NCBI RefSeq assembly: GCF_028657945.1
Contig: NZ_CP059693.1
Coordinates: 1,736,001 to 1,800,000 of the forward strand
DNA length: 64,000 nucleotides
Direction: 5' to 3'
Source of the DNA: Thalassomonas haliotis
GTDB taxonomy: Bacteria; Pseudomonadota; Gammaproteobacteria; Enterobacterales; Alteromonadaceae
The notes under the pieces are model-generated. The model ran no database searches. It had not been told where the DNA came from and was given only the letters and a program-made list of their open reading frames with translations. This document shows positions 24,687 to 56,466 of the stretch, piece after piece; the first letter of the stretch is position 1; each line of letters opens with the position of its first letter. The position numbers and the translations under genes were made by a program.

Positions 24687-25745
24687 ATGTTATTTCTCTT
24701 ACCAGCTTTGTTTGTCGCTTTTTTCGCCTCTATTTCTACCATTAAAGTATTACTACCACTTGCCCCCCATATCGGACTCGTTGATTTGCCGACAGAGAGA
24801 AAGAACCACGACGGGGCAATTCCTCTTATTGGCGGAATTTCAATTTTTACCGGGGTCTTGATTGCTTCCAGCTTATTTATAGAACAAAGTCAGCTGTTGA
24901 ATCTTTATTTGATCTCATCGGCATTCCTGGTTTTTCTCGGTACTTTGGATGACATATACGACTTAAGTGTGATCTCCAGGATTATATTCCAGGGCATAAT
25001 AGCATCAATATTGGTCTTTGGGGCCGGTATCTACATCAGTGATTTTGGTGATATTTTCTCTAGTGGCCCGGTAAATATTGGCATTTATGGCATGATCTTT
25101 ACTTGTGTTGCCTGTATTGCCGCGATAAATGCTTTTAATATGGTTGATGGTATTGATGGTTTAGCGGGCTCAATGAGCATAGTCACTATAGCTTCTATTG
25201 CTTTACTAAAACTACTTTCAGCGCAGTTAGATTTGATTTTATTGCCTTTAGTGTTGGTGGTGGCGATAGTACCGTTTCTTTTCTATAACGTCAGTAGACG
25301 TAATCCCCGAGGGAAAAAAATCTTTATGGGGGATGCCGGCAGTATGTTTATGGGCTTAACGGTGATCTGGTTGCTAACCTTGGAAACCCAGGGAGAGAGC
25401 GCATCTTTTCGCCCTGTAACCGCATTATGGATAATTGGTATCCCGCTGATGGATATGTTGTCGGTGATGCTTCGCCGTATTCGTCAGGGGAGTTCTCCTT
25501 TTAAGGCGGATAATAACCATATACATCATATTTTCATCCGGGCCGGCTATTCCTCAAGGCAAGCTTTGATCGGCCTGAGTGCAATTGCTATTTTATTTGC
25601 CTCTATCGGTATTGCCGGAGAAGTCATGCAAATTCCAGAATGGCTAATGCTTAGTGGTTTTATTATGCTTTTTGCCCTTTATACCATGATTTTGTTTCGT
25701 TATAGTCAAATAGAGACTACTGTAAAAAAGTTACCAAGTACTTAG
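24687..25745 (+). CDS. WecA/TagO-like undecaprenyl-phosphate sugar-1-phosphate transferase
   Basis: This multi-pass phosphoglycosyltransferase (352 aa, glycosyltransferase family 4 of the MraY/WecA type) would load the first sugar phosphate on undecaprenyl phosphate. Motifs visible are GLVDLPTERKNHDGAIPLIGG near the N-terminus, the catalytic aspartates in GTLDDIYDLS, NAFNMVDGIDGLAGS, FMGDAGSMFMG and the HIHH motif in NNHIHHIFIRAGYS. About ten membrane helices are present. The sugar is probably an N-acetylhexosamine, as for WecA, but this is inferred from the family. It sits between the exporter and the secretion operon, closed by a terminator, so it is probably its own transcript. It is a candidate initiator for the downstream polysaccharide. 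Confidence 0.88.
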   Translation: MLFLLPALFVAFFASISTIKVLLPLAPHIGLVDLPTERKNHDGAIPLIGGISIFTGVLIASSLFIEQSQLLNLYLISSAFLVFLGTLDDIYDLSVISRIIFQGIIASILVFGAGIYISDFGDIFSSGPVNIGIYGMIFTCVACIAAINAFNMVDGIDGLAGSMSIVTIASIALLKLLSAQLDLILLPLVLVVAIVPFLFYNVSRRNPRGKKIFMGDAGSMFMGLTVIWLLTLETQGESASFRPVTALWIIGIPLMDMLSVMLRRIRQGSSPFKADNNHIHHIFIRAGYSSRQALIGLSAIAILFASIGIAGEVMQIPEWLMLSGFIMLFALYTMILFRYSQIETTVKKLPST

Positions 25746-25868: not shown

Positions 25869-26264
25869 ATGGTTAAAAATCGTGGTTTTACGATGATTGA
25901 ACTACTCATCGTTATTGTTATTTTAGGCTTATTGGCTTCATTAGTGGCACCTAAATTTTTCTCACAACTCAGTACCGCTGAGCGTGGTATTGCTTCAGCA
26001 CAAATGAACGCCTTTGAAACAGCACTGGATACTTACCGTCTGGATTTAGGAACTTATCCTGAAAACTTAGCTCAGTTAAGGGTAAGTGATAAACCACGCT
26101 GGGATGGGCCATACCTGCCAAAAGAAGTACCTATGGATCCCTGGGGCAATCCTTATGTTTATAAGAAGCCGGGGGAAAACGGCAATCCGTATTCCATTAT
26201 GTCTTATGGGGCTGATGGCCAGCCAGGCGGGACAGATAATAATGAAGATATAGTGCACCACTAA
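25869..26264 (+). CDS. gspG: GspG-like major pseudopilin
   Basis: This is the major pseudopilin of a type II secretion-like system. I start at ATG 25869 (131 aa) after AGGA; an upstream in-frame start would add 14 residues before the prepilin leader. The leader VKNRG/FTMIELLIVIVILGLLASLVAP is a canonical prepilin peptidase site with Glu5. The C-terminal calcium-binding loop is typical of GspG (PMDPWGNPYVYKKPGENGNP, then SYGADGQPGGTDNNEDI). It is the first gene of an 11-gene operon, whereas canonical T2SS operons start with C and D. Its stop overlaps the gspE start (TAATG). Confidence 0.92.
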   Translation: MVKNRGFTMIELLIVIVILGLLASLVAPKFFSQLSTAERGIASAQMNAFETALDTYRLDLGTYPENLAQLRVSDKPRWDGPYLPKEVPMDPWGNPYVYKKPGENGNPYSIMSYGADGQPGGTDNNEDIVHH

Positions 26265-27916
26265 TGCAGTTAACTCAGTTATTACTTGAACGGTTTCATA
26301 TTGCTGCTGCTGATATTGAACGTGCTGAAAGTTTTCAAAAGCGTTATGGTGGTCGGTTAGAGCAAATCTTGGTCAATATGGGCAGCTTACCTGATGATCA
26401 AATTCCTGCGTTATTAAGTGAGTATCTTGAGATCCCGCTGTTAAATATCCTCGATTGGCAAGAAGTCGAAGCACCATGCGTTGAGGCTGAAAGTTTATAT
26501 CTATTGTTAGAGCATCAATGGATACCACTTGCCGTATCGGATAACAACTGGATCTTTGCTTGCCGATTTCCATTGGAACCCGTAATTAATGAATGGTTGT
26601 TACAGCACAATGTTGTGTTTGAAGTTTTTATTGCTAGTGAATCGGACATACAAGCCTTATCTGCAAAGTTTGAGCTACTAATTGCAGAATCGGATGAAAA
26701 TGAATTTTCCGGCGATGAAGATGAACGCTTACGTGAGTTGGCCAGTGAGGCTCCTACGGTAAACCTGCTTAATTCTCTCATTTCTCGGGCATTGCGTCAG
26801 GGCGCTTCAGATATGCATCTTGAACCTTATCAGGGACGTTACCGAGCCAGGTTCCGAGTTGATGGTGTGCTACATGATGCAGAAGCGCTGGCACCAAGAA
26901 TGCAGTTGCCGATAGTAACTCGCTTGAAAATTTTATCAGGTATGGATATTGCGGAAAAACGTCGACCGCAAGATGGTAAGATTGAGATGAAGATTGCTAA
27001 TCAAGAGCTTGATATTAGGGTTTCGGCATTGCCGTTAAATGATGGCGAGTCTATGGTGCTACGTTTCCTGCGAAAAGATAATGTTCAATACGATATGTCC
27101 GTTTTGGGGCTTTCGGATGATATTGAAACTATGATCCGTGAAGATATTAGAACTACCGCAGGGGTGGTGCTATTAACCGGACCTACCGGTTCGGGAAAGA
27201 CTACTACACTTTATACCTTCTTAAATGCCCTGAATAATAACGATGTAAAAATCATAACCTTGGAAGACCCGGTTGAATATCAATTGGAAGGTATAAACCA
27301 GGTTCAGGTCAATAGTGATATCGGTTTTAACTTTTCAGCTGGCCTACGTAGCATTGTACGTCAAGATCCTGACATTATTATGCTTGGGGAAATTCGTGAT
27401 AAAGAAACGGCGCAAATTGCGCTGCAATCCGCATTAACAGGGCATTTGGTCTTCTCTACTGTGCATACCAATGATGCGGCGAGTGCCTATACCCGGCTCT
27501 TAGATTTGGGGGTTGAAGAGTTTCTATTAAATGCGGCCTTGGTCTCTATTGTGGCTCAGCGTCTGGCACGTAAGGTTTGTGCGCAATGTACTGAACCACA
27601 CCCAGACTCACTTGATATCATAGAGAAATATCAGCTAAATGCTTTAGCCGAACGTTTTCAGGTCAATGATATTAGTCTCACCCGAGGGAAGGGGTGTGAA
27701 AGCTGTGCTTTTACCGGATATAAAGGGCGAATGGCAGTGACCGAATATCTGCGTTGTGACGATGAAATAAAGTCGATGCCCAAAGATTCTGATTTTATTC
27801 CTAAGGCGAAGAAACATAATAAAACTTTGCAGCGGAGGACTTTGTTAGAAGATGGCTTATACAAAGCTATCTTGGGATTAACGACTGTTGATGAAGTAGT
27901 TCGGGTTGCTGGTTAA
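26264..27916 (+). CDS. gspE: GspE-like secretion ATPase
   Basis: This is the hexameric cytoplasmic ATPase that drives pseudopilus assembly. The product is 550 aa. An N-terminal GspE N1-type domain (1-150) precedes the nucleotide-binding core, with Walker A GPTGSGKT (residues 306-313), the Asp box ITLEDPVEYQLEGINQVQVN, Walker B DIIMLGEIRD and the His box TGHLVFSTVHTNDA. A C-terminal tetracysteine metal site is present (CAQC near residue 440, CESC near 480). This is the type II secretion/type IV pilus family; the metal site and the F gene downstream fit GspE. It overlaps gspG and gspF by one base each. Confidence 0.93.
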   Translation: MQLTQLLLERFHIAAADIERAESFQKRYGGRLEQILVNMGSLPDDQIPALLSEYLEIPLLNILDWQEVEAPCVEAESLYLLLEHQWIPLAVSDNNWIFACRFPLEPVINEWLLQHNVVFEVFIASESDIQALSAKFELLIAESDENEFSGDEDERLRELASEAPTVNLLNSLISRALRQGASDMHLEPYQGRYRARFRVDGVLHDAEALAPRMQLPIVTRLKILSGMDIAEKRRPQDGKIEMKIANQELDIRVSALPLNDGESMVLRFLRKDNVQYDMSVLGLSDDIETMIREDIRTTAGVVLLTGPTGSGKTTTLYTFLNALNNNDVKIITLEDPVEYQLEGINQVQVNSDIGFNFSAGLRSIVRQDPDIIMLGEIRDKETAQIALQSALTGHLVFSTVHTNDAASAYTRLLDLGVEEFLLNAALVSIVAQRLARKVCAQCTEPHPDSLDIIEKYQLNALAERFQVNDISLTRGKGCESCAFTGYKGRMAVTEYLRCDDEIKSMPKDSDFIPKAKKHNKTLQRRTLLEDGLYKAILGLTTVDEVVRVAG

Positions 27917-29112
27917 TGGCGTTATATACCTATAAGGCCTACGACAAATCTGGTGCCAAGGTTGATGGACAGCTTGAAGCTGTGGATAAAGGAGCCGCTT
28001 TAACCGAGTTAAAAGCTCTGGGGCTGCTACCATCGGAACTTAAAGAGTTTAAGGCCACAAGCTCTTTGTTTGTCGGGAAAAAAGTTTCGCTAGCGGATTT
28101 GGAATTCCTTACTGCAGAGTTAAGCTTGCTACTTGAATCCGGTGTTCGCATTGATAAGGGCATAGATATTATCCGCCGTACCAAGGCAAAACCTGCATTG
28201 GCGACCTTGCTCAATGATATTAGCCGCGATATAAAAAAGGGTAAAAGCTTGTCGGAGGCGTTTCGTTCTCATGATAGTATTTTTGATAATCTTTATTGCA
28301 ATTTAATCGAATTGGGAGAAGCAACAGGTAATCTAAGTGATATTTTTAATGATCTTGCCAAAGATCTCAAATTCCGTCGTGAATTGCAGCGTAAAATAGT
28401 CAGCTCACTTGCATATCCATTGGTTATTTTCTTTGTCTGTATTTTAAGTATATTTTTTATTTTTAATATTATTATTCCCAAAATGTCTTCCATGTTTACA
28501 GGGGTTGAAAATCTCCCCTGGTACACAGCCAGCATGCTTGCAACTAGTGAGTGGATGATTCAATATCAAGGTCTGCTAATAGCAGGTATTTTCGGCTTCA
28601 TCTTTGCGCTTATCTTTGCCTCTAAACACCCCTCTGTGGTCCATTGGTGGCAAAGGTGGAGTTTAAGATTACCGGTATTAAAAACGGCGATTATCACCGT
28701 AGAGCGTATTCGCTTTAACAGTGGCTTAGCCATGATGGTCAAAGCGGGCGTACAAATAGATCAAGCAATACAATTATCAACCGGCAATATCAAGAATCAA
28801 ATGTTACGTCGAGAAATGGAAATCGCCAAGACAAAAGTTAAAGGAGGAAGTGCGTTAACACCTGCTTTAGGGCAAACATCACTTTATCCTGACTTTTTCA
28901 CTTCTTTGCTGGAAGTTGGTGAAGAGTCCGGTAATTTAGCCAGGGTATTTGATGAAATTGCCAATCGTTCCAGACAGGAATTTGAAAGTTGGACAGATCG
29001 GGTGACCACTTTAATCGAGCCATTGATGATTTTATTTATGGGGGGCTTTGTCGGGGGAGTCGTTGTGGTAATGTTATTAAGCATGGTATCGATCAATGAG
29101 ATTGGTCTTTAG
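27916..29112 (+). CDS. gspF: GspF-like inner-membrane platform protein
   Basis: This is the polytopic platform protein on which GspE acts. The product is 398 aa with the standard GspF layout: an N-terminal ALYTYKAYDKSGAKVDGQLEA segment, two T2SSF domains (about 70-190 and 270-390) and three membrane helices (near 170, 220 and 370). Conserved pieces include FLTAELSLLLESGVRIDKGI, LIELGEATGNLSDIF and the mirrored SLLEVGEESGNLARVFDEIA. The length is normal. A 70-bp gap separates it from the pseudopilin genes that follow. Confidence 0.94.
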   Translation: MALYTYKAYDKSGAKVDGQLEAVDKGAALTELKALGLLPSELKEFKATSSLFVGKKVSLADLEFLTAELSLLLESGVRIDKGIDIIRRTKAKPALATLLNDISRDIKKGKSLSEAFRSHDSIFDNLYCNLIELGEATGNLSDIFNDLAKDLKFRRELQRKIVSSLAYPLVIFFVCILSIFFIFNIIIPKMSSMFTGVENLPWYTASMLATSEWMIQYQGLLIAGIFGFIFALIFASKHPSVVHWWQRWSLRLPVLKTAIITVERIRFNSGLAMMVKAGVQIDQAIQLSTGNIKNQMLRREMEIAKTKVKGGSALTPALGQTSLYPDFFTSLLEVGEESGNLARVFDEIANRSRQEFESWTDRVTTLIEPLMILFMGGFVGGVVVVMLLSMVSINEIGL

Positions 29113-29182
29113 AGGCTATGTGGCATAGTGCTTAAACTTGTCAATTACCTAGTTTGATGACAAGGCAATAAAGTTATTTGTT

Positions 29183-29629
29183 ATGAAAGTATTTAAACAT
29201 AGGCAAACCGGTTTCACCCTGATAGAGCTTATGGTTGTTATGTCAATAGTGGCTTTATTAATGGGCATGGTTGGTCCGTTGGCGATTAACAGTTTGGAAA
29301 AGGCCCAGGCCAAGCAAGAAATGTTGAGTTTGAAGAATTGGTTTCGTAAAGTCAGTGCCAGGGCATTTAATACCGGGCAACAGCATACCATTAAATTAAC
29401 GGGCAAACAGGTCGCCTTGTATGTTAACAAACAGGGTCCGGTAGAAAGCGTTCGTTTTGAATTTTTGTTTTTCCAACCGCAAACCCTTCATTTTAGCACC
29501 AAAGGCTTTGTTGAGCCATTACTGGTAACGGGTTCTTATCGGGGAAGCCCTTTGACACTAGAACTGGCTGCCTGGATTAATGGTCATACACTTAATGAGC
29601 AACAGTTACAAAGTTTTGCGGCAAAATAA
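29183..29629 (+). CDS. gspH: GspH-like minor pseudopilin
   Basis: This 148-aa minor pseudopilin has the leader RQTG/FTLIELMVVMSIVALLMGM with Glu5 and a hydrophobic N-terminal helix. The globular part (LSLKNWFRKVSARAFNTGQQ, then beta-rich) resembles GspH/FimT. It is the first of three consecutive leader-bearing minor pseudopilins before GspK, in the usual H-I-J-K order. The start is ATG 29183. Specific assignment as H is by position and size. Confidence 0.85.
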   Translation: MKVFKHRQTGFTLIELMVVMSIVALLMGMVGPLAINSLEKAQAKQEMLSLKNWFRKVSARAFNTGQQHTIKLTGKQVALYVNKQGPVESVRFEFLFFQPQTLHFSTKGFVEPLLVTGSYRGSPLTLELAAWINGHTLNEQQLQSFAAK

Positions 29630-29637
29630 CTTAAAGT

Positions 29638-30090
29638 ATGACGGTAATGATGCAAGTTAAGCAGCCTAGTAAGACCCGAGGTTTCACTCTGATTGAAGTT
29701 TTAGTAGCGACTATCATCCTGTTTACTTCAATCGCCACCGTCTCAATGATTTATCGTGGTGCATTTCTTAGCAGTGAAAAGGCTGACAGGCATATAAAAG
29801 TCACCAGTGTATTACCTGCATTGTTGGCTAATATACGCAATGATATTCGAGCGCAGGGAAATTCACCTGAAGAAGAGCTCAGTAAGCAAGGAAAAGCCTG
29901 GTATGTTCAATATAGTTGGCGGGCAAAACTCGTGGATCATAAGTCGGCTCCCCGACGGCTAGATGTCGATACCGGAAATTATATTACTCCGCCCTTGAAG
30001 TATAAATTATGGTTGGTTGAGTTAACTATGCAGTTTCAAACGACGACCAGAGAGTATCAATTTTATGAACTGAGCTGGTCTAATGATTAA
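29638..30090 (+). CDS. gspI: GspI-like minor pseudopilin
   Basis: This 150-aa minor pseudopilin has the leader KTRG/FTLIEVLVATIILFTSIATV with Glu5, typical of GspI. In canonical systems I, J and K form the tip complex that primes the pseudopilus. It starts 9 bp after gspH; an internal ATG at 29647 is a possible alternative start. Its end overlaps gspJ by 8 bp. Identification as I is mainly from order and leader style. Confidence 0.83.
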   Translation: MTVMMQVKQPSKTRGFTLIEVLVATIILFTSIATVSMIYRGAFLSSEKADRHIKVTSVLPALLANIRNDIRAQGNSPEEELSKQGKAWYVQYSWRAKLVDHKSAPRRLDVDTGNYITPPLKYKLWLVELTMQFQTTTREYQFYELSWSND

Positions 30091-30787
30091 TCAAGTTAGA
30101 ATACGCCGGCAAAAAGCCAGAGGTTTTACGCTGATAGAGCTTATGATAGCGGTAACCATTTTATCTTTGTTATTGTTCACTGCAAGTTATACCTATAGCT
30201 TAATGTCGACACGCTGGAACAAAGAACTGGGCGAGTTTAGTTCATCGGCACGCATAGCTAAGCACCTTGAATTAACACAAAAATTACTCGAAGGCATCCA
30301 AAGTTATGTGGTTCGAGATAAAACAGATAACCCCTTCTTTTTTTTCATCGGTCATTCAAACAGCTTACTGGCGGTGAGTCAGGCGGGTTTGTTTAGCGGT
30401 GAGTATCCTGAAGTATTTCGCTTAACTGTGGTAGAAAAAGAAAATGGCTTGGTGGATCTTATATATCAATCTTTATCGACGGAACGTTTTTTATTGACCA
30501 GGACGGAACAGGTTATTGATTTTTCAAGGGCGTTAGTGCTTTTTACTGATGTTGAATCTGTTGATTTTAACTATTTCGGCTGGCGTCACTATAATGATAA
30601 GTCAAATCGTCAGCAAAGAGGGAAGAATGAAAGCTGGCGTAGTCAATATTCTGGTATTGATAGTCAGTATATGCCGTCAAAACTGCAGTTAACTATCACC
30701 CTTGCCGGGCAGGTGTTAACCATACCTGTTGTATTAGAAACAGATGTTGAAAAGTGGCTGTCACCATATTTTGAGCGGGATAGCTGA
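30083..30787 (+). CDS. gspJ: GspJ-like minor pseudopilin
   Basis: This 234-aa minor pseudopilin has the leader KARG/FTLIELMIAVTILSLLLFTA, with Glu5 and a long periplasmic domain, the largest of the leader-bearing minor pseudopilins as expected for GspJ. The globular part has RFLLTRTEQVIDFSRALVLF and a beta-rich C-terminus. It overlaps gspI by 8 bp and ends 1 bp before the gspK start, so translation of this stretch is tightly coupled. Confidence 0.85.
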   Translation: MINQVRIRRQKARGFTLIELMIAVTILSLLLFTASYTYSLMSTRWNKELGEFSSSARIAKHLELTQKLLEGIQSYVVRDKTDNPFFFFIGHSNSLLAVSQAGLFSGEYPEVFRLTVVEKENGLVDLIYQSLSTERFLLTRTEQVIDFSRALVLFTDVESVDFNYFGWRHYNDKSNRQQRGKNESWRSQYSGIDSQYMPSKLQLTITLAGQVLTIPVVLETDVEKWLSPYFERDS

Positions 30788-30788
30788 T

Positions 30789-31691
30789 ATGCGTTTGAAT
30801 AATAAAGATCAAGGCATTGCTTTGATTCAGGTTTTGTTGGTTACTGCAGTACTTTCTGTTTTAGCGTTATTTATGACACAAACGGCTAAAAATCAGGTCA
30901 GTCAAGCCCAGTGGGTGAATGACAAAGCTCAGGCACAAGTCGAACTGTATAGCGCTGAAGCATTATTATTATTTGAGTTGCTAACACAGAAAAAAATAAA
31001 ATCTCCCCAGATGTCTGAAAGTGTTACCGGTGATATTGCCAGCCGCTGGAATTTCTTTGCTATGCCTTTCTCGTTGAAAGACGGCGTTGAGGTTAAAATA
31101 CAAGACCAAAGTGGTTTGCTTCAATTGCATTATCCTGATAGCGGCTTATTAAAAAAATTAGTTGCGACTGTGGAGCCATCTCCTGCCAAAGTTGAAATTA
31201 TTGTCGATAGCATAATGGATTGGCAGGATTTAGATAATACTTTGCGGGCAAACGGGGCTGAAGCTGGTAAATATAGCTCAAAAGGGCTCATTCGAAATGG
31301 CGCAGTCCCTTCCGTTTATGATATAAAGCACGTTAAATCAATTACTCCGGCCGTATTAGAATTGTTAAAAGAAAATACAACAATATACCAAGCCGGCGCT
31401 TTTAGTCCCATTAATGCGCCTGAAGGGTTATTAAATGCCTTAATGGATCTCAATACCGTCGAACAGGTATTGAGTTTAAGACGTTCAAATCAAATGACGA
31501 ACAATTTATTTAGTGACATCACAGGTATTGTTGAGGATGACGACACTTATTTTTACACCTCCAACTACTTAATGATTGACTTAGTCAGTGAGATTGGAGA
31601 ATCTAAAGTGAATAGGAAGTTGTTCATTCATCTGCAGCCTTATGCTGAAGCTGATAAGAAACCCATAAATATTTTTTTAAGCCGTGGTTAA
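30789..31691 (+). CDS. gspK: GspK-like minor pseudopilin
   Basis: GspK is the large pseudopilin that caps the pseudopilus tip. I start at ATG 30789 (300 aa), because it gives a short basic leader; an upstream start inside gspJ is unlikely. The leader DQG/IALIQVLLVTAVLSVLALFM has a Gln in place of Glu5, and GspK normally lacks Glu5. The mature part contains SIMDWQDLDNTLRANGAEAG, the DWxDxDxxxxxxGAE signature of GspK, and a VYDIKHVKSITPAVLELL helical region. The length fits the family. Confidence 0.9.
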   Translation: MRLNNKDQGIALIQVLLVTAVLSVLALFMTQTAKNQVSQAQWVNDKAQAQVELYSAEALLLFELLTQKKIKSPQMSESVTGDIASRWNFFAMPFSLKDGVEVKIQDQSGLLQLHYPDSGLLKKLVATVEPSPAKVEIIVDSIMDWQDLDNTLRANGAEAGKYSSKGLIRNGAVPSVYDIKHVKSITPAVLELLKENTTIYQAGAFSPINAPEGLLNALMDLNTVEQVLSLRRSNQMTNNLFSDITGIVEDDDTYFYTSNYLMIDLVSEIGESKVNRKLFIHLQPYAEADKKPINIFLSRG

Positions 31692-31694
31692 TTT

Positions 31695-32879
31695 GTGATA
31701 ACAGAACTCCCCGACAATCCTCAAGAAGTTAAAATGCCCATCACTTTAAAAAAAGCCTTATCTATCCTGGGCTATTATTTTGATGGCCGGTTAAAGCGAT
31801 TTTATTTGGATGAACATCAACAATTAAGATTAAAAAAAGTTGAAGGAAATGAAAAAAGCATACCTTTGCTGATCCTTTCACGACAATATTACAGTGAATT
31901 GGCAAAAACGTACCCTATTGATAATAAATCAGAATTAAAAAAATTATTAAAGCTGGAATTTATTGATGAGCCATCAACACATTATCATGTGTGGCACCAA
32001 AAAGATGGCTATTCCCAGGTGAATATATGGCGATTTGTCAATAATATTCCTGCGGCATTAATAACACTGCCTGAGTCTCTGTTGATTGCGCTGGGCAATG
32101 ATGATGCTCAAGTGGCGCAGGTTAAAACTGACAGCACATTGTTTGTAGGCAGACATAATGCGTTAGTACATTCGGCCTTATCAAATACGGTCATTACCTC
32201 CTGTCAGCGTTTTGTTATGTCGACCGGGGTGCTGGATAGCCGTCCGATACGAAATATAAGTGCAGATACATTTGCACAGCAGCTGGCCTCAGGGTTCAAT
32301 AAAGCTATATTCCCTGCTTTATCTGCTTTTATTCGGGCGCCGGAGCGAGCGCTAAACCTGCAAATCGTGAAAAAAATATTGATTCCTTTTTCATTGGTAT
32401 TTTCGTGTTATTTAATAGCAAGCAGTACTTATTTAGTGGGAATAAATTATTTATTGCAGCAGGGAGGGAAAGATCAGACTAAGGAAATCAATCAGGTCCT
32501 GGCGGCACAGCAGGAAGTTGATCTGTCTTTACAGCGTTTTCTCCAGTTAAAAGCTTTTTGGGCTGAGCAACAAAATTCCAGTCAACTTTGGCTGGTATTG
32601 CCTGAGTTATTTCCGTATGCCCAATTTAGCAATATTCGTATCGTTGACGGACGATATGTGTTGCGTGGTTCTGCGCAAAAAGCCACTGATCTTTTAGCAC
32701 GGCTGAGTAGTCTTGAGCAGGTTGTTGATGCCAAGTTTGATTATCCGACAAGAAAAAGTAAAGGACGTGAGTTATTTGTGATTGGTTTTTCCTTTTCCGC
32801 AGTAAAAATGGCTATTGCAGAAGCCGGTGAGATAAAAAGACAGGCTTTAATACAAGATGAGGTAGCTCAAAATGACTGA
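31695..32879 (+). CDS. gspL: GspL-like inner-membrane assembly protein
   Basis: This bitopic protein would link the ATPase to the periplasmic parts. It starts at GTG 31695 and gives 394 aa. The N-terminal half is a cytoplasmic actin-like region, without motifs I can name. One transmembrane helix lies at about 230-250 (ILIPFSLVFSCYLIASSTYLV), followed by a coiled-coil stretch and a small ferredoxin-like periplasmic domain (YAQFSNIRIVDGRYVLRGSA). This is the GspL/PilM-N layout. Sequence similarity to classical GspL is not obvious by eye, so the call rests on layout and position between K and M. Confidence 0.75.
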   Translation: MITELPDNPQEVKMPITLKKALSILGYYFDGRLKRFYLDEHQQLRLKKVEGNEKSIPLLILSRQYYSELAKTYPIDNKSELKKLLKLEFIDEPSTHYHVWHQKDGYSQVNIWRFVNNIPAALITLPESLLIALGNDDAQVAQVKTDSTLFVGRHNALVHSALSNTVITSCQRFVMSTGVLDSRPIRNISADTFAQQLASGFNKAIFPALSAFIRAPERALNLQIVKKILIPFSLVFSCYLIASSTYLVGINYLLQQGGKDQTKEINQVLAAQQEVDLSLQRFLQLKAFWAEQQNSSQLWLVLPELFPYAQFSNIRIVDGRYVLRGSAQKATDLLARLSSLEQVVDAKFDYPTRKSKGRELFVIGFSFSAVKMAIAEAGEIKRQALIQDEVAQND

Positions 32880-33462
32880 GCTTAGAAAACATGCATTCCT
32901 TATTGCTGTATTGCTGTTGCTAGTAGTGATCAAATTTATTTTACTACCTATTTTCCAGTGGCAAGAGCAATTATCTATTGAAAATAATCGATTAGAGAAA
33001 AAAGCGGCTAAAATCTCCAAGGTTTTAACTGATGACGGGCGAGTGGCAGAGGTACGACAACAACTTGTCCGTCAACTTAAACTTGGCGAAAGTTTGCTTT
33101 TTTCTTATCAGGAGGAAGCTGCATTTAAGTTAACACAACAGCAAGTCTTTGAACGTTTACTGGAAAAGCATGCTTTAAAGGCGAGTAATATCGGTTGGCA
33201 AACCGGCAGTGCTTTGGAGAATGTCGGCTTAGTGAAATACCAGGTTAAAATAAAATTTGATGGAAAATTCGTTGACGTTATTGCCATGTTTGCCGAATTA
33301 GAAAGTTCAACTCCCTGGTTGCAAATCCATGATTTTAATATAACAAGTAAGGGACAGAAAGCAGATGATCTTGGTTATATTAGGGGGGGAAGGGTGACAA
33401 TTAATTTATTTATGAATCAGTCGCCATCCGATGCTTTCGTAGCTGAAAGTAAGGAGGCTTAA
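32872..33462 (+). CDS. gspM: GspM-like inner-membrane protein
   Basis: This 196-aa bitopic protein has a short cytoplasmic start, a transmembrane helix at about 8-25 (FLIAVLLLLVVIKFILLPIF), a coiled-coil segment (about 28-75) and a small periplasmic alpha/beta domain (about 90-185, with KYQVKIKFDGKFVDVIAMFA and TPWLQIHDFNITSKGQ). The last part resembles the GspM/PilO ferredoxin-like fold. It overlaps gspL by 8 bp and abuts the next gene. In canonical systems GspL and GspM heterodimerise. Confidence 0.75.
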   Translation: MTELRKHAFLIAVLLLLVVIKFILLPIFQWQEQLSIENNRLEKKAAKISKVLTDDGRVAEVRQQLVRQLKLGESLLFSYQEEAAFKLTQQQVFERLLEKHALKASNIGWQTGSALENVGLVKYQVKIKFDGKFVDVIAMFAELESSTPWLQIHDFNITSKGQKADDLGYIRGGRVTINLFMNQSPSDAFVAESKEA

Positions 33463-34047
33463 GTGATTACCTCAGGACTAAGCAAAGCGATATTGACAGA
33501 TAAAATAGCGCTTGTGACAATAATATTGACCTTGATTTGGGTTGTTGGCGATGTTCAAGAACGTCTGCTGAGTAATAACCAACAAAGCAGTAAAGTTACA
33601 ACGTATCCAACAATTACTCCTTTATTGTTACCGTTACTAGCCAAAGATAAAGCGGAGCAGATCCAGCAAAAATATTTGCAATATCGCATAGCCCCTCAGG
33701 CTAAAGTGTCCGAGTCTGCTGGAATGACTGCTGAAGAGCAGGCGCGGCAGCATGGGGAGTTAACCCGGGTTTTTGCCGGTGAGCATGAACTGAAACTAAA
33801 AGCGGTCATTGAGAGCGTCGATAAGGATGGGGTCAAAACTAGCAACGAGCTAATGGCTTTGATAGCTGTCAAAAACGTAACTACTGGTCAAACAACAATA
33901 GAAAGCTTCCTTCAGGGCTCACAGGTCTATGGTTTCCGTCTGGGGATTGAGAATAACACCCAAGTTATATTAACGAATACAAGCCAGCAAGGCGAGCAAA
34001 AAATCATCTTATCTATGTATGCACTTAAAGAAGAAGTAACCAATTAA
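33463..34047 (+). CDS. gspC: GspC-like inner-membrane protein with HR domain, no PDZ
   Basis: This 194-aa bitopic protein starts at GTG 33463. It has a transmembrane helix at about 15-33 (ALVTIILTLIWVVGDV), a linker and a periplasmic beta-rich domain (about 105-190) with HELKLKAVIESVDKDG, QTTIESFLQGSQVYGFRLG and NTQVILTNTSQQGEQKIILS. That pattern resembles the homology-region domain of GspC, which binds the secretin N0 domain. No C-terminal PDZ or coiled coil is present, unlike typical GspC (about 270-300 aa). A PilP-like role is the alternative. It abuts the secretin gene directly. Confidence 0.65.
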   Translation: MITSGLSKAILTDKIALVTIILTLIWVVGDVQERLLSNNQQSSKVTTYPTITPLLLPLLAKDKAEQIQQKYLQYRIAPQAKVSESAGMTAEEQARQHGELTRVFAGEHELKLKAVIESVDKDGVKTSNELMALIAVKNVTTGQTTIESFLQGSQVYGFRLGIENNTQVILTNTSQQGEQKIILSMYALKEEVTN

Positions 34048-36081
34048 ATGAATAATATCAAAAACTTCAGTCTTAGCTTTATGACCGTTCTCTTGTTAAC
34101 TGCTTGTGCGGGGCAAGGGAATAATGAACTTCAGATCAAGCAGTCATTCCTAAAAAAGAAAGGCCTGACTACCGAAGTGGCGAATGCAGAACTTGTAGCG
34201 AATAGTAATCCTGCTGAAGAAGTACCTCAGCAGGAATTCCGTTTTGTGCCACCAATAAAACTCAATACCAATCAGGCGAAATCGGCACAAGAAGTTTTAA
34301 CTCAATTCAGCGCAACTAAGGAACTAACTATTACCGCGAATGAATTGCCGCTAAAGGATTATTTACATCAGGTTTTTGGAGAGCAATTGCAGCTGAGTTA
34401 CATTTTAGCTGAAGAGGTGAAAAGTGATAATCAGTCGGTGTCACTGAATTTGCAAACCCCGATCACAGAGCGCAAGCTTTTTACTCTGACGGAAGAAATT
34501 CTAACACAACGTAATTACACGGTTCGTTTCGACGATGGCATTTTTTACATCCATAAAGCCACCCAAAAAGCGGCCAAAGGTAATGTTGTTTATGGCTATG
34601 GCAAACAATTGTCGGATGTACCGCAAACGTCATTAGATATTATTCAAATGGTTCCATTTGAATACGGCGCACAGACTTCCCTGGGAAACACCTTAAGACA
34701 ACTGTTGGGGGTCAAGGCATTAACGGATCAGCAGCGAAGCAGTATTACCGTCCAGGGCAAGCGGAAAGATGTCATACGTGCGCTGGAGTTGATCCAGATC
34801 ATGGATCAGCCTTTATTTAAAGATCGTCAAATAGGCGTGTACAAGAGTGCTTTTTTATCAACCAAAGAGTTGACCGGTAAATTGACTGAGCTTCTAGGCC
34901 AGGAGGGCATATCTGTCGGCAAAGGTAAAGCTGCAACGCTGGCCCTGTCTATTGTCGAGTTGGATAAGCAAGGAGAATTGATTTTCTTTGCCAATAATAT
35001 CGATGTTATTGAACGCGCTGTGTTTTGGGCAAAAACTATTGATAAACCGCTTCTAAGTTCTGAAAAGAAATATTTTATTTATTCTCCTATGTATTCCCGG
35101 GCAATAGATATGGGGGAAAGCCTGGAGGCGCTTATCGGCAGTGGCGGCAGCGGTCTTGGCAATAGTACTTCGGCAGCAGAGCAGAATAAAGGCGCGTCCC
35201 AGTCTCAGGTACGCAGCGCCAGTTCAAAAGATATGAAGATGGTGATTGATGAACGGGCTAATTCGTTGATTTTTTTCACTTCAGGCGAAGCCTATCAGCA
35301 ATTGTATCCCTTGATAAAGCGATTAGATGTGTTGCCTAAGCAAGTGATGCTGGAAGTGGTTATTGCGGAGGTGAAATTAACCGATGAATTTAAAAGCGGT
35401 GTTGATTTTAATTTGACTAATCAGGGCAGTGCTACCACAGCGGGCGGTTTTAATCTTGAAGGAAGTGATACTGGGCTAAGTTATGTGCTTTCCGGTACCC
35501 GCGGCAAGTTATCGGTTAGCCTGTTCCAAAAAAATGATAATGTGAATGTTTTATCCCGTCCGACTTTGCTTGTACGCGACGGCGTAATGGCGACTATTAC
35601 CGTCGGGGATGATATTCCCACCGTTGGTGCTATCGTGACTGATCCGGTTAACGGCAGTACCACCTCTGTTGTTTATCGAAAAACCGGAGTGGATTTGAAG
35701 GTTCAGCCGACCATTAATGCCCGCGGCGTCATTATTATGGAGATTAACCAAAAAATCAGCAACCAGGCAACGGGCAGTTCTTCTGTGGAAAATTCACCGA
35801 TTATTTTTGAGCGAACCATAGAAACCGAGGTGATTGCCGAAAGCGGACAAACCATAGTGCTGGGGGGGTTAATGAGCGAAAACCGTACCATAAATGATAC
35901 CAGCGTGCCGTTCTTTTCCGACCTGCCGTTTGTCGGGAAATTATTCGATAGTAAAAATGATACTAAGGATAAAACTGAATTAGTGGTGCTGGTAACCCCA
36001 CGCATCATCGAATCTTCTGATGAATGGGAAGACATTAAGGCGAGGTTTTCCGGGATTATGGCGGATTTACTCCTGGAATAG
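34048..36081 (+). CDS. gspD: GspD-like outer-membrane secretin lipoprotein
   Basis: This is the outer-membrane channel of the secretion system. The product is 677 aa. The signal ends in lipobox LLTAC (Cys20, followed by Ala), so it is itself a lipoprotein and may not need a pilotin. N0/N1-type domains lie at about 85-330, followed by a Ser/Gly-rich loop (GSGGSGLGNSTS). The secretin core has VMLEVVIAEVKLTDEF, NVNVLSRPTLLVRDG, GDDIPTVGAIVTDPVNG, TGVDLKVQPTINARG and TIVLGGLMSENRT, and ends VPFFSDLPFVGKLFDS with a LVVLVTPRII strand. All secretin landmarks are present. It is the last gene of the operon; the next gene is its candidate substrate. Confidence 0.93.
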   Translation: MNNIKNFSLSFMTVLLLTACAGQGNNELQIKQSFLKKKGLTTEVANAELVANSNPAEEVPQQEFRFVPPIKLNTNQAKSAQEVLTQFSATKELTITANELPLKDYLHQVFGEQLQLSYILAEEVKSDNQSVSLNLQTPITERKLFTLTEEILTQRNYTVRFDDGIFYIHKATQKAAKGNVVYGYGKQLSDVPQTSLDIIQMVPFEYGAQTSLGNTLRQLLGVKALTDQQRSSITVQGKRKDVIRALELIQIMDQPLFKDRQIGVYKSAFLSTKELTGKLTELLGQEGISVGKGKAATLALSIVELDKQGELIFFANNIDVIERAVFWAKTIDKPLLSSEKKYFIYSPMYSRAIDMGESLEALIGSGGSGLGNSTSAAEQNKGASQSQVRSASSKDMKMVIDERANSLIFFTSGEAYQQLYPLIKRLDVLPKQVMLEVVIAEVKLTDEFKSGVDFNLTNQGSATTAGGFNLEGSDTGLSYVLSGTRGKLSVSLFQKNDNVNVLSRPTLLVRDGVMATITVGDDIPTVGAIVTDPVNGSTTSVVYRKTGVDLKVQPTINARGVIIMEINQKISNQATGSSSVENSPIIFERTIETEVIAESGQTIVLGGLMSENRTINDTSVPFFSDLPFVGKLFDSKNDTKDKTELVVLVTPRIIESSDEWEDIKARFSGIMADLLLE

Positions 36082-36086
36082 CCTAT

Positions 36087-36137
36087 ACGAGCGTTATTTT
36101 CCGGTAGATGCAAAAAAATGCATGCTCGTGTGTATTT
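36087..36137 (+). terminator. Probable terminator after gspD
   Basis: ACGAGC (36087-36092) pairs with GCTCGT (36124-36129), enclosing an inner ATGCA/TGCAT hairpin (36108-36123) with an A6 loop, and a T-rich tract follows. It lies 5 bp after the gspD stop and probably separates the secretion operon from the downstream structural gene. Confidence 0.5.
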
Positions 36138-36377
36138 TTGTGTGTGATTTTTGCACTGTCATGCTAACATTTTGCTGGAAAATGCCAGTAACTAACTAAA
36201 TTTTAACACTAATTTCTGAGGATTGATTCAACTCATTATTTTCCCTGGGATGCTTGAAATACTGTGGTTTCTGGGTTAGGGTTCTGCCTGAAAGTTTTAC
36301 TCCTGGCTTTTTGGTTGAAAAATGGTCAACTATCTGTTTTTCATTCACTTAGTTAGCTAAGTTTTGTTACGGAATAC

Positions 36378-36405
36378 TTGACAAGCTAAACTCACGGCGT
36401 AAACT
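36378..36405 (+). promoter_or_regulatory. Strong sigma-70 promoter of the 561-aa surface protein gene
   Basis: A perfect -35 box TTGACA (36378-36383), a 16-base spacer and a -10 box TAAACT (36400-36405) precede the surface-protein gene by about 120 bp. A perfect 6-bp inverted repeat ACTTAG-TTAG-CTAAGT (36347-36362) lies just upstream of the -35 box and could be an operator or a hairpin. The rest of the 444-bp gap (36138-36346) shows nothing I can name. Confidence 0.7.
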
Positions 36406-36411
36406 TACTGG

Positions 36412-36440
36412 CGTTAGAAGTCGCTTTGGCGACGGCCTAA
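36412..36440 (+). other. 5' untranslated-region stem-loop of the surface protein mRNA
   Basis: Near the predicted transcription start, GTCGC (36420-36424) and GCGAC (36429-36433) form a TTTG-loop hairpin. It is extended by TTAG (36414-36417) pairing with CTAA (36437-36440). A stem-loop at the 5' end, followed by about 85 bases of leader and a strong GAAGGAAA ribosome-binding site (about 36511-36518), is what long-lived, highly translated mRNAs often show. The stabilising role is inferred. Confidence 0.45.
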
Positions 36441-36525
36441 GTGTTAATTTTTTAACGTAATAATTATTTGAGCGAGTAAAAATAATTTTATTAACTCTGT
36501 TTCATGAAACGAAGGAAAACAAAAA

Positions 36526-38211
36526 ATGTTTAAAAAAACTCTTTTAGCATTAACTGTTGCAAGTTTATCTTGCGCTGCCAATGCTGGTACTATTTACCCA
36601 GCAGTAACTGACAGTGTTATTACTGCGGCCGATTTTACCGTAACTCCTGCTGCTGCTGAAGCACTTGGTGCCGATGGTGCTTTAGCCGGTGGTGATGATA
36701 ACTGTGATGTAGCAGCAACTGACTTATCTGTTACTTTAGGTAACACAGGTAACGGCGAAGGCGGCAACAATGATGCAGTATCTAATGCTAACCAAACCGG
36801 TATTTTCGATAGCGCTACTTCTGTAACTATGGATGGTGCTGGTACTTGTGATGCAATTCAAGCCGATGTCATCACTACTGCTCCTATCTCAAGCAGTATC
36901 GAAGCGGCTCAAAACACTTTAGTTCCTGTTACTGCTTCTTTAGTTGCTGGTATCGGTGGTTATGATGTTGGTGATACTCTAACGTTCAACCTTACCGGTG
37001 CGACAATCGACACTGCTAACTCTCCTGCTCCTACGCTGACAAGTAACGAAGCCGGTATTGTTATCAATGTATTAGACATTACTACAACTACTGTTCGTTT
37101 TACTGTTGATGCAACTTCAAACAAAGTTTCTGGTTTAGGTATCCTGAACCTGGGCGGCGTTAACTTAGACGCAACCGGTTTAAGCACTTCAACTGAAGTA
37201 TCTTTAAGCTCTTTCGCCACTAACACCTCTGGTACTCAGTTCGACGTAACTGCTGCTGCTGTTGTTGCTGATTTAGTGCCTCAGTACTCTACTGAAGTAA
37301 CTACCGCTATGGACGGTGTTATTGACGTTTCTTTAGACCGTCAGTCTCTTGAAGATGTTGGTGCCACTGATACCGCAGGTACTGGTGAAGCCGTTGATAA
37401 CGATACTTTAGTATTAACAACTACTTTAGATGCGACCGGTACTACTGTTACTCCTAGCACTATCACATTTACTTTCGGTGGTGATTTCACTTGGTTAGAA
37501 ACTGTTGCCAACACTAGTGATGACTCAGTTGCTGCTACTGATGCCGAAGTATTGTTATACCTAGATACTACTCAAACAGCTGCTTTCTTAACTGGTGGTA
37601 CTGATGACGCCATGACCGCTGCTTCTTTAAACGAAGACATGGATGAGTTGACTATTACGGCAAGTGCTGGCTCTAACGTTGTTGATGGTACTCATACCTT
37701 CATCTTCGAAGTTCCTGGCCAAGCAGATACCAGCCCGGTATTAGTTGAAAGTGACTACACTGTTAACATGACTGTTAATGATGCTACTGCTTCTCCTAAC
37801 ACTATCACTATGAATGCTGGTACTGTTGACGCCGGTGCATGGACATTAAATGGTTCTGTAGTAACTATTCCTTACATGCCTTTCGATGACAACACAGCTG
37901 TTATCTTACGTCACACCAACACTGGTGTTCAAACTGGTGATGTGAGCGTACGTTACATGCTTGAAGGTGTTTCTAGCGATTGGGTATCTGTTGGTGTAGT
38001 TACTTCTTCATCTCGCGGTGTTCAAAATATCCGCGATGCAGTTATGAATGCAATCACAGCTGATGCCGGTGTAGACAGCGGTAAAGTTGCAATTGAAATC
38101 ACTACTAACGTACCAAGTGCTGACGTAACCGTTTACGCAGCTTACAAAGTACGTGACGAGCAAGACCGTGGTTTCGTTGGTACTTTCGGCCAGCACGGCT
38201 CAGCACAGTAA
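36526..38211 (+). CDS. Abundant secreted surface protein, S-layer candidate
   Basis: The 561-aa protein has a signal peptide (MFKKTLLALTVASLSCAANA, cleavage after ANA at about residue 20). The mature part is rich in Thr, Ala, Val and Asp, poor in Lys and beta-rich by appearance. Two early cysteines (DDNCDVA and GAGTCDAI) may form a disulfide. The C-terminal domain has VRYMLEGVSSDWVSVGVV and ends AAYKVRDEQDRGFVGTFG. I do not recognise a named family. Codon use is strikingly restricted (ACT, GCT, GGT, GTT, TTA), unlike the neighbouring genes, as in very highly expressed genes. It has its own promoter, leader and strong terminator and follows the secretin gene. I infer it is the dedicated substrate and an S-layer-type subunit; an abundant exported enzyme or adhesin is the alternative. 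Confidence 0.75.
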   Translation: MFKKTLLALTVASLSCAANAGTIYPAVTDSVITAADFTVTPAAAEALGADGALAGGDDNCDVAATDLSVTLGNTGNGEGGNNDAVSNANQTGIFDSATSVTMDGAGTCDAIQADVITTAPISSSIEAAQNTLVPVTASLVAGIGGYDVGDTLTFNLTGATIDTANSPAPTLTSNEAGIVINVLDITTTTVRFTVDATSNKVSGLGILNLGGVNLDATGLSTSTEVSLSSFATNTSGTQFDVTAAAVVADLVPQYSTEVTTAMDGVIDVSLDRQSLEDVGATDTAGTGEAVDNDTLVLTTTLDATGTTVTPSTITFTFGGDFTWLETVANTSDDSVAATDAEVLLYLDTTQTAAFLTGGTDDAMTAASLNEDMDELTITASAGSNVVDGTHTFIFEVPGQADTSPVLVESDYTVNMTVNDATASPNTITMNAGTVDAGAWTLNGSVVTIPYMPFDDNTAVILRHTNTGVQTGDVSVRYMLEGVSSDWVSVGVVTSSSRGVQNIRDAVMNAITADAGVDSGKVAIEITTNVPSADVTVYAAYKVRDEQDRGFVGTFGQHGSAQ

Positions 38212-38228
38212 TTTGTGATTATGCCTAA

Positions 38229-38281
38229 GCGTTAAGTTATTTAACGCTAAGATAAAAAGCGAGCTTAGGCTCGCTTTTTTT
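38229..38281 (+). terminator. Double hairpin terminator after the surface protein gene
   Basis: A first hairpin pairs GCGTTAA (38229-38235) with TTAACGC (38241-38247). A second, stronger one pairs AAAAAGCGAGC (38254-38264) with GCTCGCTTTTT (38269-38279) across a TTAG loop and ends in a T run. It is an efficient-looking intrinsic terminator 17-70 bp after the stop, isolating this gene as a single transcript. Confidence 0.88.
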
Positions 38282-38320: not shown

Positions 38321-38647
38321 GTGAGTATTTTAGATTCAGACAAACTGCGTAAAGCCGATAAGTTCTTTACTGACGGGCAATACCAAAAAGCAGATAAAAT
38401 CATCAGAAAGGCAAAGGGCAATAGTGAGCAGAAGTTAGCACTCGCCCTTAAAGTGAACTTTAAACTGAATAAGATGGCGCAGGGGCTTGCAGTAGCACAG
38501 CAGTTAACCCGACTGCTGGGACAAACTGATAAACCTCTTTACCATACTTCAAAAGAGAAGTGGCACCGATACAGGCAATATCTTGAGCCTTATATCCCTG
38601 AGCTGGAATACTTTATTCAAAAATACGGGTATAGGGTAAGTGATTGA
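38321..38647 (+). pseudogene. Internally deleted remnant of a TPR-sulfotransferase
   Basis: This is a 108-aa open frame starting at GTG 38321. The first ~70 residues (SDKLRKADKFFTDGQYQKAD and on) look like the N-terminal TPR-type start of the 577-aa sulfotransferase encoded at 40204-41937. The last ~35 (HTSKEKWHRYRQYLEPYIPE, then LEYFIQKYGY) match the extreme C-terminus of that same family (compare KTSIYKWKNYQQNIEQYIPR). The P-loop and the rest of the catalytic domain are absent. I therefore read it as a gene that lost its middle by an in-frame deletion. It could still be expressed as a small protein. It overlaps the next gene by one base (TGATG). Confidence 0.55.
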
Positions 38648-39621: not shown

Positions 39622-39737
39622 TAAAGTATCGACAGATAGAATTATCCTGGTGGGCTAAATCAAGTCGACCCGCTTCTGAGTTGGGTATATTATAACTGTG
39701 CAAGTTACGATTAGAAGTTTCCTAATCGTTAATGACT

Positions 39738-40165
39738 GATAAGCCCTTTATGGATAAGCACGGTTGTATCGCTATTCATATACTTAAATATCTGCGGCAA
39801 TCTGTGACGTTTATTTAAATGATGCCTGTTAAGTGGGGATCTTTATTTGGGAAGCGAAAGCATAGGTTTATTGTGCTCCGGGAGCTAACAAAAAGGCTTT
39901 ATTCTTCCTCAGGTATTTGTCAACAGATAGGGAGGGAGGAAAGTCCGCCATTAACACTGCTTATAAGAGTCCATAGCGGCAGTGAATCAGGTTTGATAAG
40001 CTCTTGTATAAAATGTTGATTTTTATCTGTCGTCAGTCTATTTTCAGGCCGCCATATTGGCATATTTTTATTTGCGAACTGGTTGGTGTGTTGATCTTCT
40101 ACTCGGGTATGCGCATTTTATATGGCAAGGGGATGATAGTAGCCCACCCCAGTTTGCCGTTATTT
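39738..40165 (+). pseudogene. Decayed sulfotransferase (copy related to the gene at 42777)
   Basis: Pieces of a sulfotransferase can be read in different frames and match the intact 226-aa protein encoded at 42777-43457. They are KPFMDKHGCIAIHI (intact: KPFMHTYNCIFIHI), then after a stop KHRFIVLRELTKRLYSS (intact: YHKFAIVREPAERLYSA). From about 40019, DFYLSSVYFQ and CVDLLLGYAHFIWQ match intact DFYMLQPLFQ and RVDRLLRYETLMQDW. DNA identity is still obvious at the start (TAAGCCCTTTATG shared). Frameshifts, stops and a deletion make it non-functional. Short open frames here are fragments of this relic. The PAPS-binding PKNAGSS motif is lost (reads LKYLRQS). Confidence 0.75.
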
Positions 40166-40203
40166 AATTTGACATACCTGCTGAATTTATCCTGAAACCA
40201 CTT

Positions 40204-44438: not shown

Positions 44439-44496
44439 TCTTGTCTGTATTGCTAGCAGGCTTTACATCAAAAAGCGTTGCAGGTAAGTGCTTACT

Positions 44497-49824: not shown

Positions 49825-49833
49825 GTTTTGACA

Positions 49834-52294: not shown

Positions 52295-52313
52295 TATGTG
52301 TTGAGAAATTTAA

Positions 52314-53240: not shown

Positions 53241-53245
53241 CTAGT

Positions 53246-56441: not shown

Positions 56442-56466
56442 TCAAAAAGGGATACGAGAGTAATTA

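What the first reader, a model, noticed from the sequence alone, without database searches (positions are those of the whole stretch)
25869..38281. Dedicated type II secretion-like operon with its own abundant surface-protein substrate
Eleven secretion genes in the order G-E-F-H-I-J-K-L-M-C-D end with a secretin. Right behind it lies a strongly expressed signal-peptide protein with its own promoter and terminator. A one-machine-one-substrate pair is reminiscent of Aeromonas, where a dedicated secretin (SpsD) exports the S-layer subunit. Marine gammaproteobacteria also have an S-layer family (Slr4 of Pseudoalteromonas); whether this protein belongs to it I cannot tell without a search. I infer that this operon exports a surface layer or coat protein.
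Basis: partly seen in the sequence, partly recalled or inferred. Interest (0 to 1): 0.85.

Follow-up and report, generated by a model that had tools for sequence, protein, structure and literature searches.

The report
S-layer protein with its own exporter
A marine bacterium encodes a protein-export machine directly beside the gene for the protein coat (S-layer) that it most probably exports; this pairing is already published for related bacteria, and here it holds in every genome checked and reaches coat proteins that a standard family model misses.

Summary
A divergent type II secretion cluster, G-E-F-H-I-J-K-(L-M-C)-D (25869-36081), is followed by a 561-aa protein (36526-38211) that is Slr4, a known S-layer protein (Pfam PF19526, E 2e-58). 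Pairing and dedicated exporter were proposed in 2020 (PMC7821379), so the kind is known; export by this machine is unproven. New here: (1) all 32 Slr4 genomes checked have the machine or its secretin beside an slr4 gene, though two genomes also hold an isolated second copy; of 80 named loci found through the secretin, 75 carry Slr4, four lack it because of contig breaks, one carries a diverged relative; (2) the cargo's C-terminal domain recurs in nine further genomes that Pfam's Slr4 model misses, each beside a related cluster; (3) the module sits in polysaccharide loci (62 of 71), as in Aeromonas; (4) within the genus the left flank is 90-99% identical but the module only 29-85%, which suggests cassette exchange. 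slr4 has the most ribosomal-like codon use of 47 window ORFs. Verdict: new member of a known kind.

The parts
21747..24485 (+). polysaccharide export protein with SLBB domains; conserved upstream neighbour
   Evidence: Pfam SLBB E 7.9e-43, Poly_export E 1.9e-13; inside the fetched 20-kb stretch in 14 of 17 other slr4 loci
24687..25745 (+). WecA-like glycosyl-phosphate transferase
   Evidence: PF00953 E 4.8e-33
25869..26264 (+). gspG-type major pseudopilin
   Evidence: TIGR01710 138.9 bits, cut-off 88.85; PF08334
26264..27916 (+). gspE-type ATPase, divergent
   Evidence: TIGR02533 E 4e-152, below its cut-off
27916..29112 (+). gspF-type inner-membrane protein, divergent
   Evidence: TIGR02120 E 5.3e-86, below its cut-off
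29183..29629 (+). gspH-type minor pseudopilin
   Evidence: N_methyl; TIGR01708 E 5.7e-11, below its cut-off
29638..30090 (+). gspI-type minor pseudopilin
   Evidence: N_methyl E 6.1e-6; position
30083..30787 (+). gspJ-type minor pseudopilin
   Evidence: N_methyl E 1.1e-8; position
30744..31691 (+). gspK-type minor pseudopilin
   Evidence: PF21687 32.9 bits, cut-off 26.2; NF037980 E 4e-20, below its cut-off
31695..32879 (+). gspL-like protein
   Evidence: position and size; PilN hit in 4 of 10 relatives
32872..33462 (+). gspM-like protein
   Evidence: position and size; T2SSM_b hit in 1 of 10 relatives
33463..34047 (+). putative gspC-like protein
   Evidence: position and size only; no relevant family hit in 5 relatives
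34048..36081 (+). secretin (gspD-type); N-terminus reads like a lipoprotein signal (by eye)
   Evidence: PF00263 E 1.2e-41; groups with other G-first Slr4-linked secretins, 97/95
36378..36405 (+). possible sigma-70 promoter of slr4
   Evidence: 10 of 12 consensus matches; not beyond chance
36526..38211 (+). slr4: S-layer protein, 561 aa with signal peptide (by eye); mature part 54.8 kDa, pI 4.05; C-terminal domain about residues 431-561
   Evidence: PF19526 E 2e-58; codon use and composition
38254..38281 (+). intrinsic terminator behind slr4
   Evidence: second hairpin of the fold of 38225-38290
38644..58354 (.). polysaccharide locus: glycosyltransferases, sulfotransferases, flippase-like and Wzz-like proteins
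   Evidence: Pfam for 38644, 40204, 43458, 44488 and 52314; the other genes by eye

Best explanation
The locus is a self-contained S-layer module. The 561-aa protein is Slr4, made in large amounts from its own transcript, sent through Sec to the periplasm, folded, and passed through the secretin at 34048-36081 by the G-K pseudopilus machine, driven by the E ATPase. Outside, it assembles into a lattice; its conserved C-terminal domain is the likely part that is either recognised by this machine or holds the lattice on the surface polysaccharide made by the surrounding locus. The pseudopilins are processed by the genome's single prepilin peptidase, shared with the other systems. Shown: family identity, anatomy, gene linkage, codon bias, setting in a polysaccharide locus. 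Inferred: export by this machine, lattice formation in this species, role of the C-terminal domain, anchoring on polysaccharide.
For: Pfam Slr4 E 2e-58. Slr4 in 18 of 394 genomes of the order, all 18 with the cluster beside it; 14 further Slr4 genomes in a family sample of 59, one read as a gene map (G400) and 13 of 13 with the secretin next to an slr4 gene by coordinates. Of 80 named loci picked by the secretin, 75 carry Slr4, 4 lack it because of contig breaks, 1 has a diverged relative behind D. D-to-slr4 gap: median 312.5 bases, at most 1500 in 73 of 74. G-first Slr4-linked secretins and ATPases each form one group apart from the canonical ones (97/95, 95/84). Secretin and Slr4 tree distances correlate, r 0.605, 0 of 1000 permutations as high. 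Canonical T2SS elsewhere. One prepilin peptidase match. Codon use. Polysaccharide genes within 8 kb downstream in 62 of 71 loci, none in five 20-kb stretches elsewhere in the genome by the same search. Slr4 of P. tunicata forms the S-layer and its deletion removes it (abstract of PMC7821379); [quoted passage not shown]
Against: No experiment on this species. Two genomes have an isolated second Slr4 gene (L185, L186), so a copy can exist apart from the machine. L, M and C are weakly or not supported, and D, E and F miss equivalog cut-offs. The promoter is not beyond chance. G230, the 18th Slr4 genome, has its secretin in another group of the tree (L043). The secretin-Slr4 correlation does not control for species history, and E-Slr4 and F-Slr4 correlate less (0.433, 0.501) than D-E (0.729). 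Polysaccharide anchoring rests on neighbourhood and analogy; 9 of 71 loci lack such genes within 8 kb.
Confidence: 0.88

Rival explanations
1. Slr4 is exported by the genome's canonical T2SS, and the linked cluster serves other or additional substrates.
For: A canonical gspC-to-M set exists; T2SS machines often carry many substrates (general knowledge). Two genomes have an Slr4 copy away from any such cluster.
Against: 32 of 32 Slr4 genomes keep the cluster or its secretin beside an slr4 gene and cargo type largely follows the machine's group. I did not test neighbours as other substrates; recurrent non-polysaccharide neighbours were a nitroreductase-family protein (19 loci) and a 558-aa protein without a Pfam hit (12 loci).
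Confidence: 0.07
2. The cluster is chiefly an apparatus of the capsule or O-antigen locus, and Slr4 is a passenger neighbour.
For: The module lies between an SLBB export gene with a WecA-like gene and polysaccharide genes; the SLBB gene is within 40 kb in 19 of 21 slr4 genomes of the family sample (coordinates).
Against: The SLBB gene occurs without the T2SS cluster (five stretches L179-L183; SLBB in 44 but Slr4 in 21 of 59 genomes), whereas no Slr4 genome checked lacks the cluster or its secretin.
Confidence: 0.04
3. The 561-aa protein is periplasmic or loosely released and forms no lattice in this species.
For: Only 16-51% identity to the 72 relatives aligned; a lattice was shown in P. tunicata, as far as I read.
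Against: Match to the whole Pfam profile, 1-370 of 370; extreme codon bias, acidic and lysine-poor composition.
Confidence: 0.06

Closest known systems
Slr4 S-layer of Pseudoalteromonas tunicata D2 with upstream T2SS genes (PMC7821379: abstract, sections 2.5 and 4.5, passages; PMC11094555: passages)
   Same: Same protein family (PF19526), T2SS genes directly upstream; a dedicated T2SS is proposed there.
   Different: The window protein is diverged (Pfam match full length, but low identity to most relatives). The size of the linkage, cargo missed by the Pfam model, the polysaccharide-locus setting and the within-genus module replacement were not in the parts I read.
Aeromonas hydrophila AH-1 S-layer system SpsE-M, Orf2, SpsD, VapA (PMC4413209, passages)
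   Same: T2SS cluster ending in a secretin followed by the S-layer gene, inserted in an O-antigen cluster; a putative protein (SpsM) and a hypothetical one (Orf2) stand where M and C stand here.
   Different: Order starts E-F-G; here G comes first. VapA was not compared by sequence.
NpdA S-layer protein with 12 upstream gsp genes in Beta- and Gammaproteobacteria (PMC10765051, passages)
   Same: S-layer gene behind a gsp cluster; P. citrulli has a second gsp cluster.
   Different: A different named protein; its sequence relation to Slr4 was not tested.
Canonical T2SS of the same genome (L045)
   Same: Related G, E, F, K and D.
   Different: Order C-D-E-F-G onwards; GspC, GspD and GspL pass NCBIfam cut-offs, GspM does not and the GspN candidate has no hit; its secretin lies far from the window's.

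Membership tests
Slr4 S-layer family (PF19526) | Pfam gathering score | tested here: met
   198.8 bits against 25, profile 1-370 of 370
Slr4 S-layer family (PF19526) | Sec signal peptide | tested here: inconclusive
   Read by eye; no predictor was at hand. Residues 1-25 are the best conserved of 23 blocks in 73 proteins
Slr4 S-layer family (PF19526) | T2SS cluster adjacent | tested here: met
Slr4 S-layer family (PF19526) | Forms a square S-layer lattice on the cell | not testable with these tools
   Needs electron microscopy; reported for P. tunicata (abstract)
Slr4 S-layer family (PF19526) | Very abundant protein | tested here: inconclusive
   Codon use only
Type II secretion system (NCBIfam equivalogs) | GspD, GspE and GspF cut-offs | tested here: not met
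   293.5/351.35, 507.3/630.25, 289.4/424 bits
Type II secretion system (broad sense) | Secretin, GspE-type ATPase, GspF, GspG and minor pseudopilins | tested here: met
   PF00263, TIGR02533, TIGR02120, TIGR01710, N_methyl in H, I, J, PF21687 in K
Type II secretion system (broad sense) | GspC | tested here: inconclusive
   ORF at the right place; no family hit, no match to the canonical GspC
Type II secretion system (broad sense) | GspL and GspM | tested here: inconclusive
   Weak hits in some relatives; no match to the canonical L or M
Aeromonas Sps/VapA system | Gene order E-F-G-...-D-VapA | tested here: not met
   Window order starts G-E-F-H; Aeromonas order from PMC4413209
Aeromonas Sps/VapA system | VapA homology of the cargo | not tested
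   No Aeromonas sequence was fetched by name
NpdA S-layer family | NpdA homology of the cargo | not tested
   No NpdA sequence at hand

The most novel reading that the evidence does not exclude
Slr4 is one branch of a wider set of S-layer proteins, each exported by its own branch of a divergent T2SS and sharing a C-terminal domain of about 115 residues that acts as the export-recognition or surface-anchoring module. At least two further cargo groups exist that Pfam's Slr4 model misses: one (L081, L082, L083, L085, probably L174) beside E-first clusters, homologous to Slr4 along its length; one (L079, L080, L170, probably L078) with G-first clusters, sharing the C-terminal domain. The module behaves as an exchangeable cassette inside polysaccharide loci, so that coat, exporter and surface sugar may be swapped together.
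Probability: 0.5. Interest if true: 0.6.

Novelty: new member of a known kind. Interest (0 to 1): 0.4.

Why it matters
How T2SS machines choose substrates is a long-standing open question. A machine and cargo inherited together, with cargo groups that share one C-terminal domain, offer a clean system for finding the recognition signal. The proteins missed by Pfam are testable S-layer candidates in marine Gammaproteobacteria, and the cassette behaviour suggests how phage- and predator-exposed surfaces could be exchanged between species.

Tried and rejected
A genome-contig scan with the Slr4 protein found no relative; the scan by secretin profile did. Solved-structure searches gave weak hits only (Slr4 profile best E 0.026, six of nine rows Wza and one more a polysaccharide export protein; C-terminal profile best E 0.062; L086 cargo E 0.18); I take them as chance. 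c-di-GMP control of GspE was considered for its MshE-type N-terminus (31.1 bits, cut-off 38); at the G of the recalled RLG motif 89 of 91 Slr4-linked rows have E and 2 have D, so it is not claimed. No ops/JUMPstart element lies near the locus; no Rfam family in 20000-45000. L086-L088 carry a signal-peptide-like protein behind D, but the match to Slr4 covers 30 columns: not counted. Seven of the 14 stretches (L084, L086-L091) show no C-terminal-domain cargo. In the script results up to I had taken L078 to lack a cargo gene; one search found one upstream of G. Profile A1 was built from Slr4-linked secretins, so its score gap is partly built in; with the window secretin alone, Slr4-linked ones in L027-L042 score 446 bits or more, L043 212, the G-first sisters L078-L080 318-337, the other related loci read at most 247, the canonical one 90. 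A9 held the cargo of L079-L083, L085 and L170, so only G031, G357 and G013 are independent finds; G013's match is weak (E 3.9e-6, model positions 13-78 of 133).
Full report
What is there. Eleven co-oriented genes run from 25869 to 36081. G, E, F, K and D match Pfam or NCBIfam models and H, I, J match through prepilin N-termini. L, M and C rest on position, with weak support for L and M and none for C. D, E and F stay below NCBIfam equivalog cut-offs, so the machine is divergent. 444 bases behind the secretin starts a 561-aa ORF, which is Slr4 (PF19526, 198.8 bits, E 2e-58), with one copy in the 6.45-Mb genome. Its codon use is more ribosomal-like than that of the other 46 window ORFs. A strong terminator follows; the promoter is only plausible. 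The mature protein is 54.8 kDa, pI 4.05.

Prior knowledge. Slr4 was described in 2020 as the S-layer protein of Pseudoalteromonas tunicata, with T2SS genes directly upstream and a dedicated T2SS suggested (PMC7821379: abstract, sections 2.5 and 4.5, passages). PMC11094555 repeats the neighbourhood (passages). A full-text search for Slr4 from 2020 on listed 17 papers; I looked into four that concern this protein and judged the rest by the listing. 'S-layer' with 'dedicated type II secretion' listed one. The finding is a new member of a known kind.

Is the pairing obligate? Of 394 genomes of the order, 18 have Slr4; all 18 have the cluster beside it (window; L027-L043; L038 is cut by its contig). 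In L037 and L038 slr4 points away from G. In a family sample of 59 genomes 21 have Slr4; seven were already counted. Of the 14 new ones, G400 was read, and in the other 13 the secretin lies next to an slr4 gene by coordinates. That makes 32 of 32 genomes. Against strictness: G409 and G421 each have a second Slr4 gene with no T2SS gene found in 20 kb around it (L185, L186). From the other side, a scan of named genomes with the secretin profile kept the best 80 of 92 relatives, and 75 carry Slr4 by a profile of 19 Slr4 proteins. Of the other five, L118, L132 and L161 end just behind D; L136 is a second contig of the genome whose Slr4 is on L134. L170 has a 664-codon signal-peptide-like ORF whose start lies about 400 bases behind D. 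The two sets overlap (eight equal contig lengths). The gap from D to slr4 has a median of 312.5 bases in 74 loci. Apart from this cluster the genome has PilQ, MshL, SctC/SctV and a canonical gspC-to-M set and one prepilin peptidase match.

Wider than Pfam. Fourteen stretches around more distant secretins were read. Proteins beside several have no Slr4 hit in Pfam. Those of L081, L082, L083 and L085 align with the Slr4 profile over 407 columns (probability 97.6, P 2.7e-12). Those of L079, L080 and L170 align over the C-terminal 112 columns (93.2, P 2.9e-7). The secretin as control gives P 0.26; L086/L088 gave 49.7 over 30 columns. These values are for one pair of profiles. In 73 Slr4 proteins, residues 426-550 average 1.53 bits per column in five blocks of 25 (1.11-1.87), against 1.95 for the signal peptide, 1.78 for 251-275 and at most 1.20 for the other blocks. 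A profile of the C-terminal domain finds 27 of 394 genomes, 32 places: the 18 Slr4 genomes and nine more. All nine have T2SS genes beside it: L078-L083 and L085, G031 (L174) and G013 (L184). Of the 43 genomes found by the secretin profile, 17 lack the domain, so not every related cluster has this cargo.

Trees (22 Slr4 rows picked by me, 17 others, outgroups). G-first Slr4-linked secretins form one group (97/95), as do their ATPases (95/84). The G-first clusters with diverged cargo and the E-first clusters form others; the outgroup branches are long. G230 (L043), a Pfam Slr4 genome, falls with the E-first clusters, so Slr4 in Pfam's sense does not follow one machine group without exception. 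Tree distances of secretin and Slr4 correlate (r 0.605; E-Slr4 0.433; F-Slr4 0.501; D-E 0.729; 79 rows, L043 left out and identical secretins removed), without control for species history.

Setting. The module lies between an SLBB export gene with a WecA-like gene and a polysaccharide locus. The SLBB gene is in the fetched stretch of 14 of 17 other slr4 loci. In the 59-genome sample SLBB (E up to 1e-40) is in 44 and Slr4 in 21. By coordinates the two lie within 13 kb in 16 of the 21, at 21-38 kb in 3, on different contigs in 1, and SLBB has no match in 1. Of 73 named loci, 71 have ORFs downstream of slr4. 62 of these 71 have a polysaccharide-type gene within 8 kb (seven protein groups named by Pfam, two by eye; 60 of 71 with the seven alone). 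Nine queries by phmmer (these groups' representatives with one sulfotransferase) hit 62 of 71 loci and none of five 20-kb stretches elsewhere in the genome. In genomes without slr4, polysaccharide genes follow or flank the SLBB gene in 4 of 5 stretches read (not L181; L178 was cut by its contig end); L180 has SLBB and WecA directly beside RmlB and RmlA. In Aeromonas hydrophila AH-1, sps genes and vapA are likewise inserted in the O11-antigen cluster (PMC4413209, passages).

Exchange. Against a second species of the same genus (G400), proteins left of the module are 90-99% identical (chemotaxis, MlaA, SLBB, WecA). G, E and F are 77-85%, H to C run from 56 down to 29-31%, D is 57%, Slr4 37%, and the polysaccharide side is also low (25-63%). 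The window's E is nearer to Pseudoalteromonas denitrificans (80%) and D to a Colwellia MAG (67%) (measured over aligned columns) than to its own genus (77 and 57%, tblastn). This points to replacement by recombination, though fast evolution of L, M, C and Slr4 adds to it.

Mechanism. Most likely Slr4 passes through Sec, folds in the periplasm, is pushed through this secretin by the pseudopilus and forms a lattice held on the surface polysaccharide. Identity, linkage and setting are shown; export route, lattice and anchoring are inferred.

Noticed in passing
L131, L139, L149, L154 (Pseudidiomarina); L029/L153 (Ferrimonas aestuarii): Three to five Slr4-like ORFs in tandem behind one T2SS cluster, some of them short or weak matches; might allow coat variation.
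   Followed up: no
L185 12713-14086; L186 9309-10709: Isolated second Slr4 genes, with no T2SS gene found in 20 kb around, in two genomes that also have the linked copy.
   Followed up: partly
window 26264-26440 and relatives: GspE N-terminus matches an MshE-type c-di-GMP motif below cut-off (31.1 of 38 bits); the recalled RLG reads RLE here, with E in 89 and D in 2 of 91 rows.
   Followed up: partly
window 38321-38647 and 40204-41937: A short TPR-like ORF behind slr4 and a TPR-sulfotransferase on the other strand; similar proteins occur in 9 of 104 loci counted, within 300 bases of slr4 in L030/L097, L105, L115 and, weakly, L032/L112.
   Followed up: partly
L086 14619-16385, L087 14926-16716, L088 14645-16201: Proteins of about 500-600 aa with signal-peptide-like starts behind the secretin of a third T2SS lineage; no Pfam family over its cut-off; possible further S-layer proteins.
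   Followed up: partly
own genome, L047 (C1:3287500-3307400): A type III secretion system with SctC and SctV.
   Followed up: no
window 58565-59986: ORF that reads like a transposase at the end of the polysaccharide locus (by eye).
   Followed up: no
window 60398-63391, - strand: 997-aa protein with leucine-rich-repeat-like sequence (by eye).
   Followed up: no
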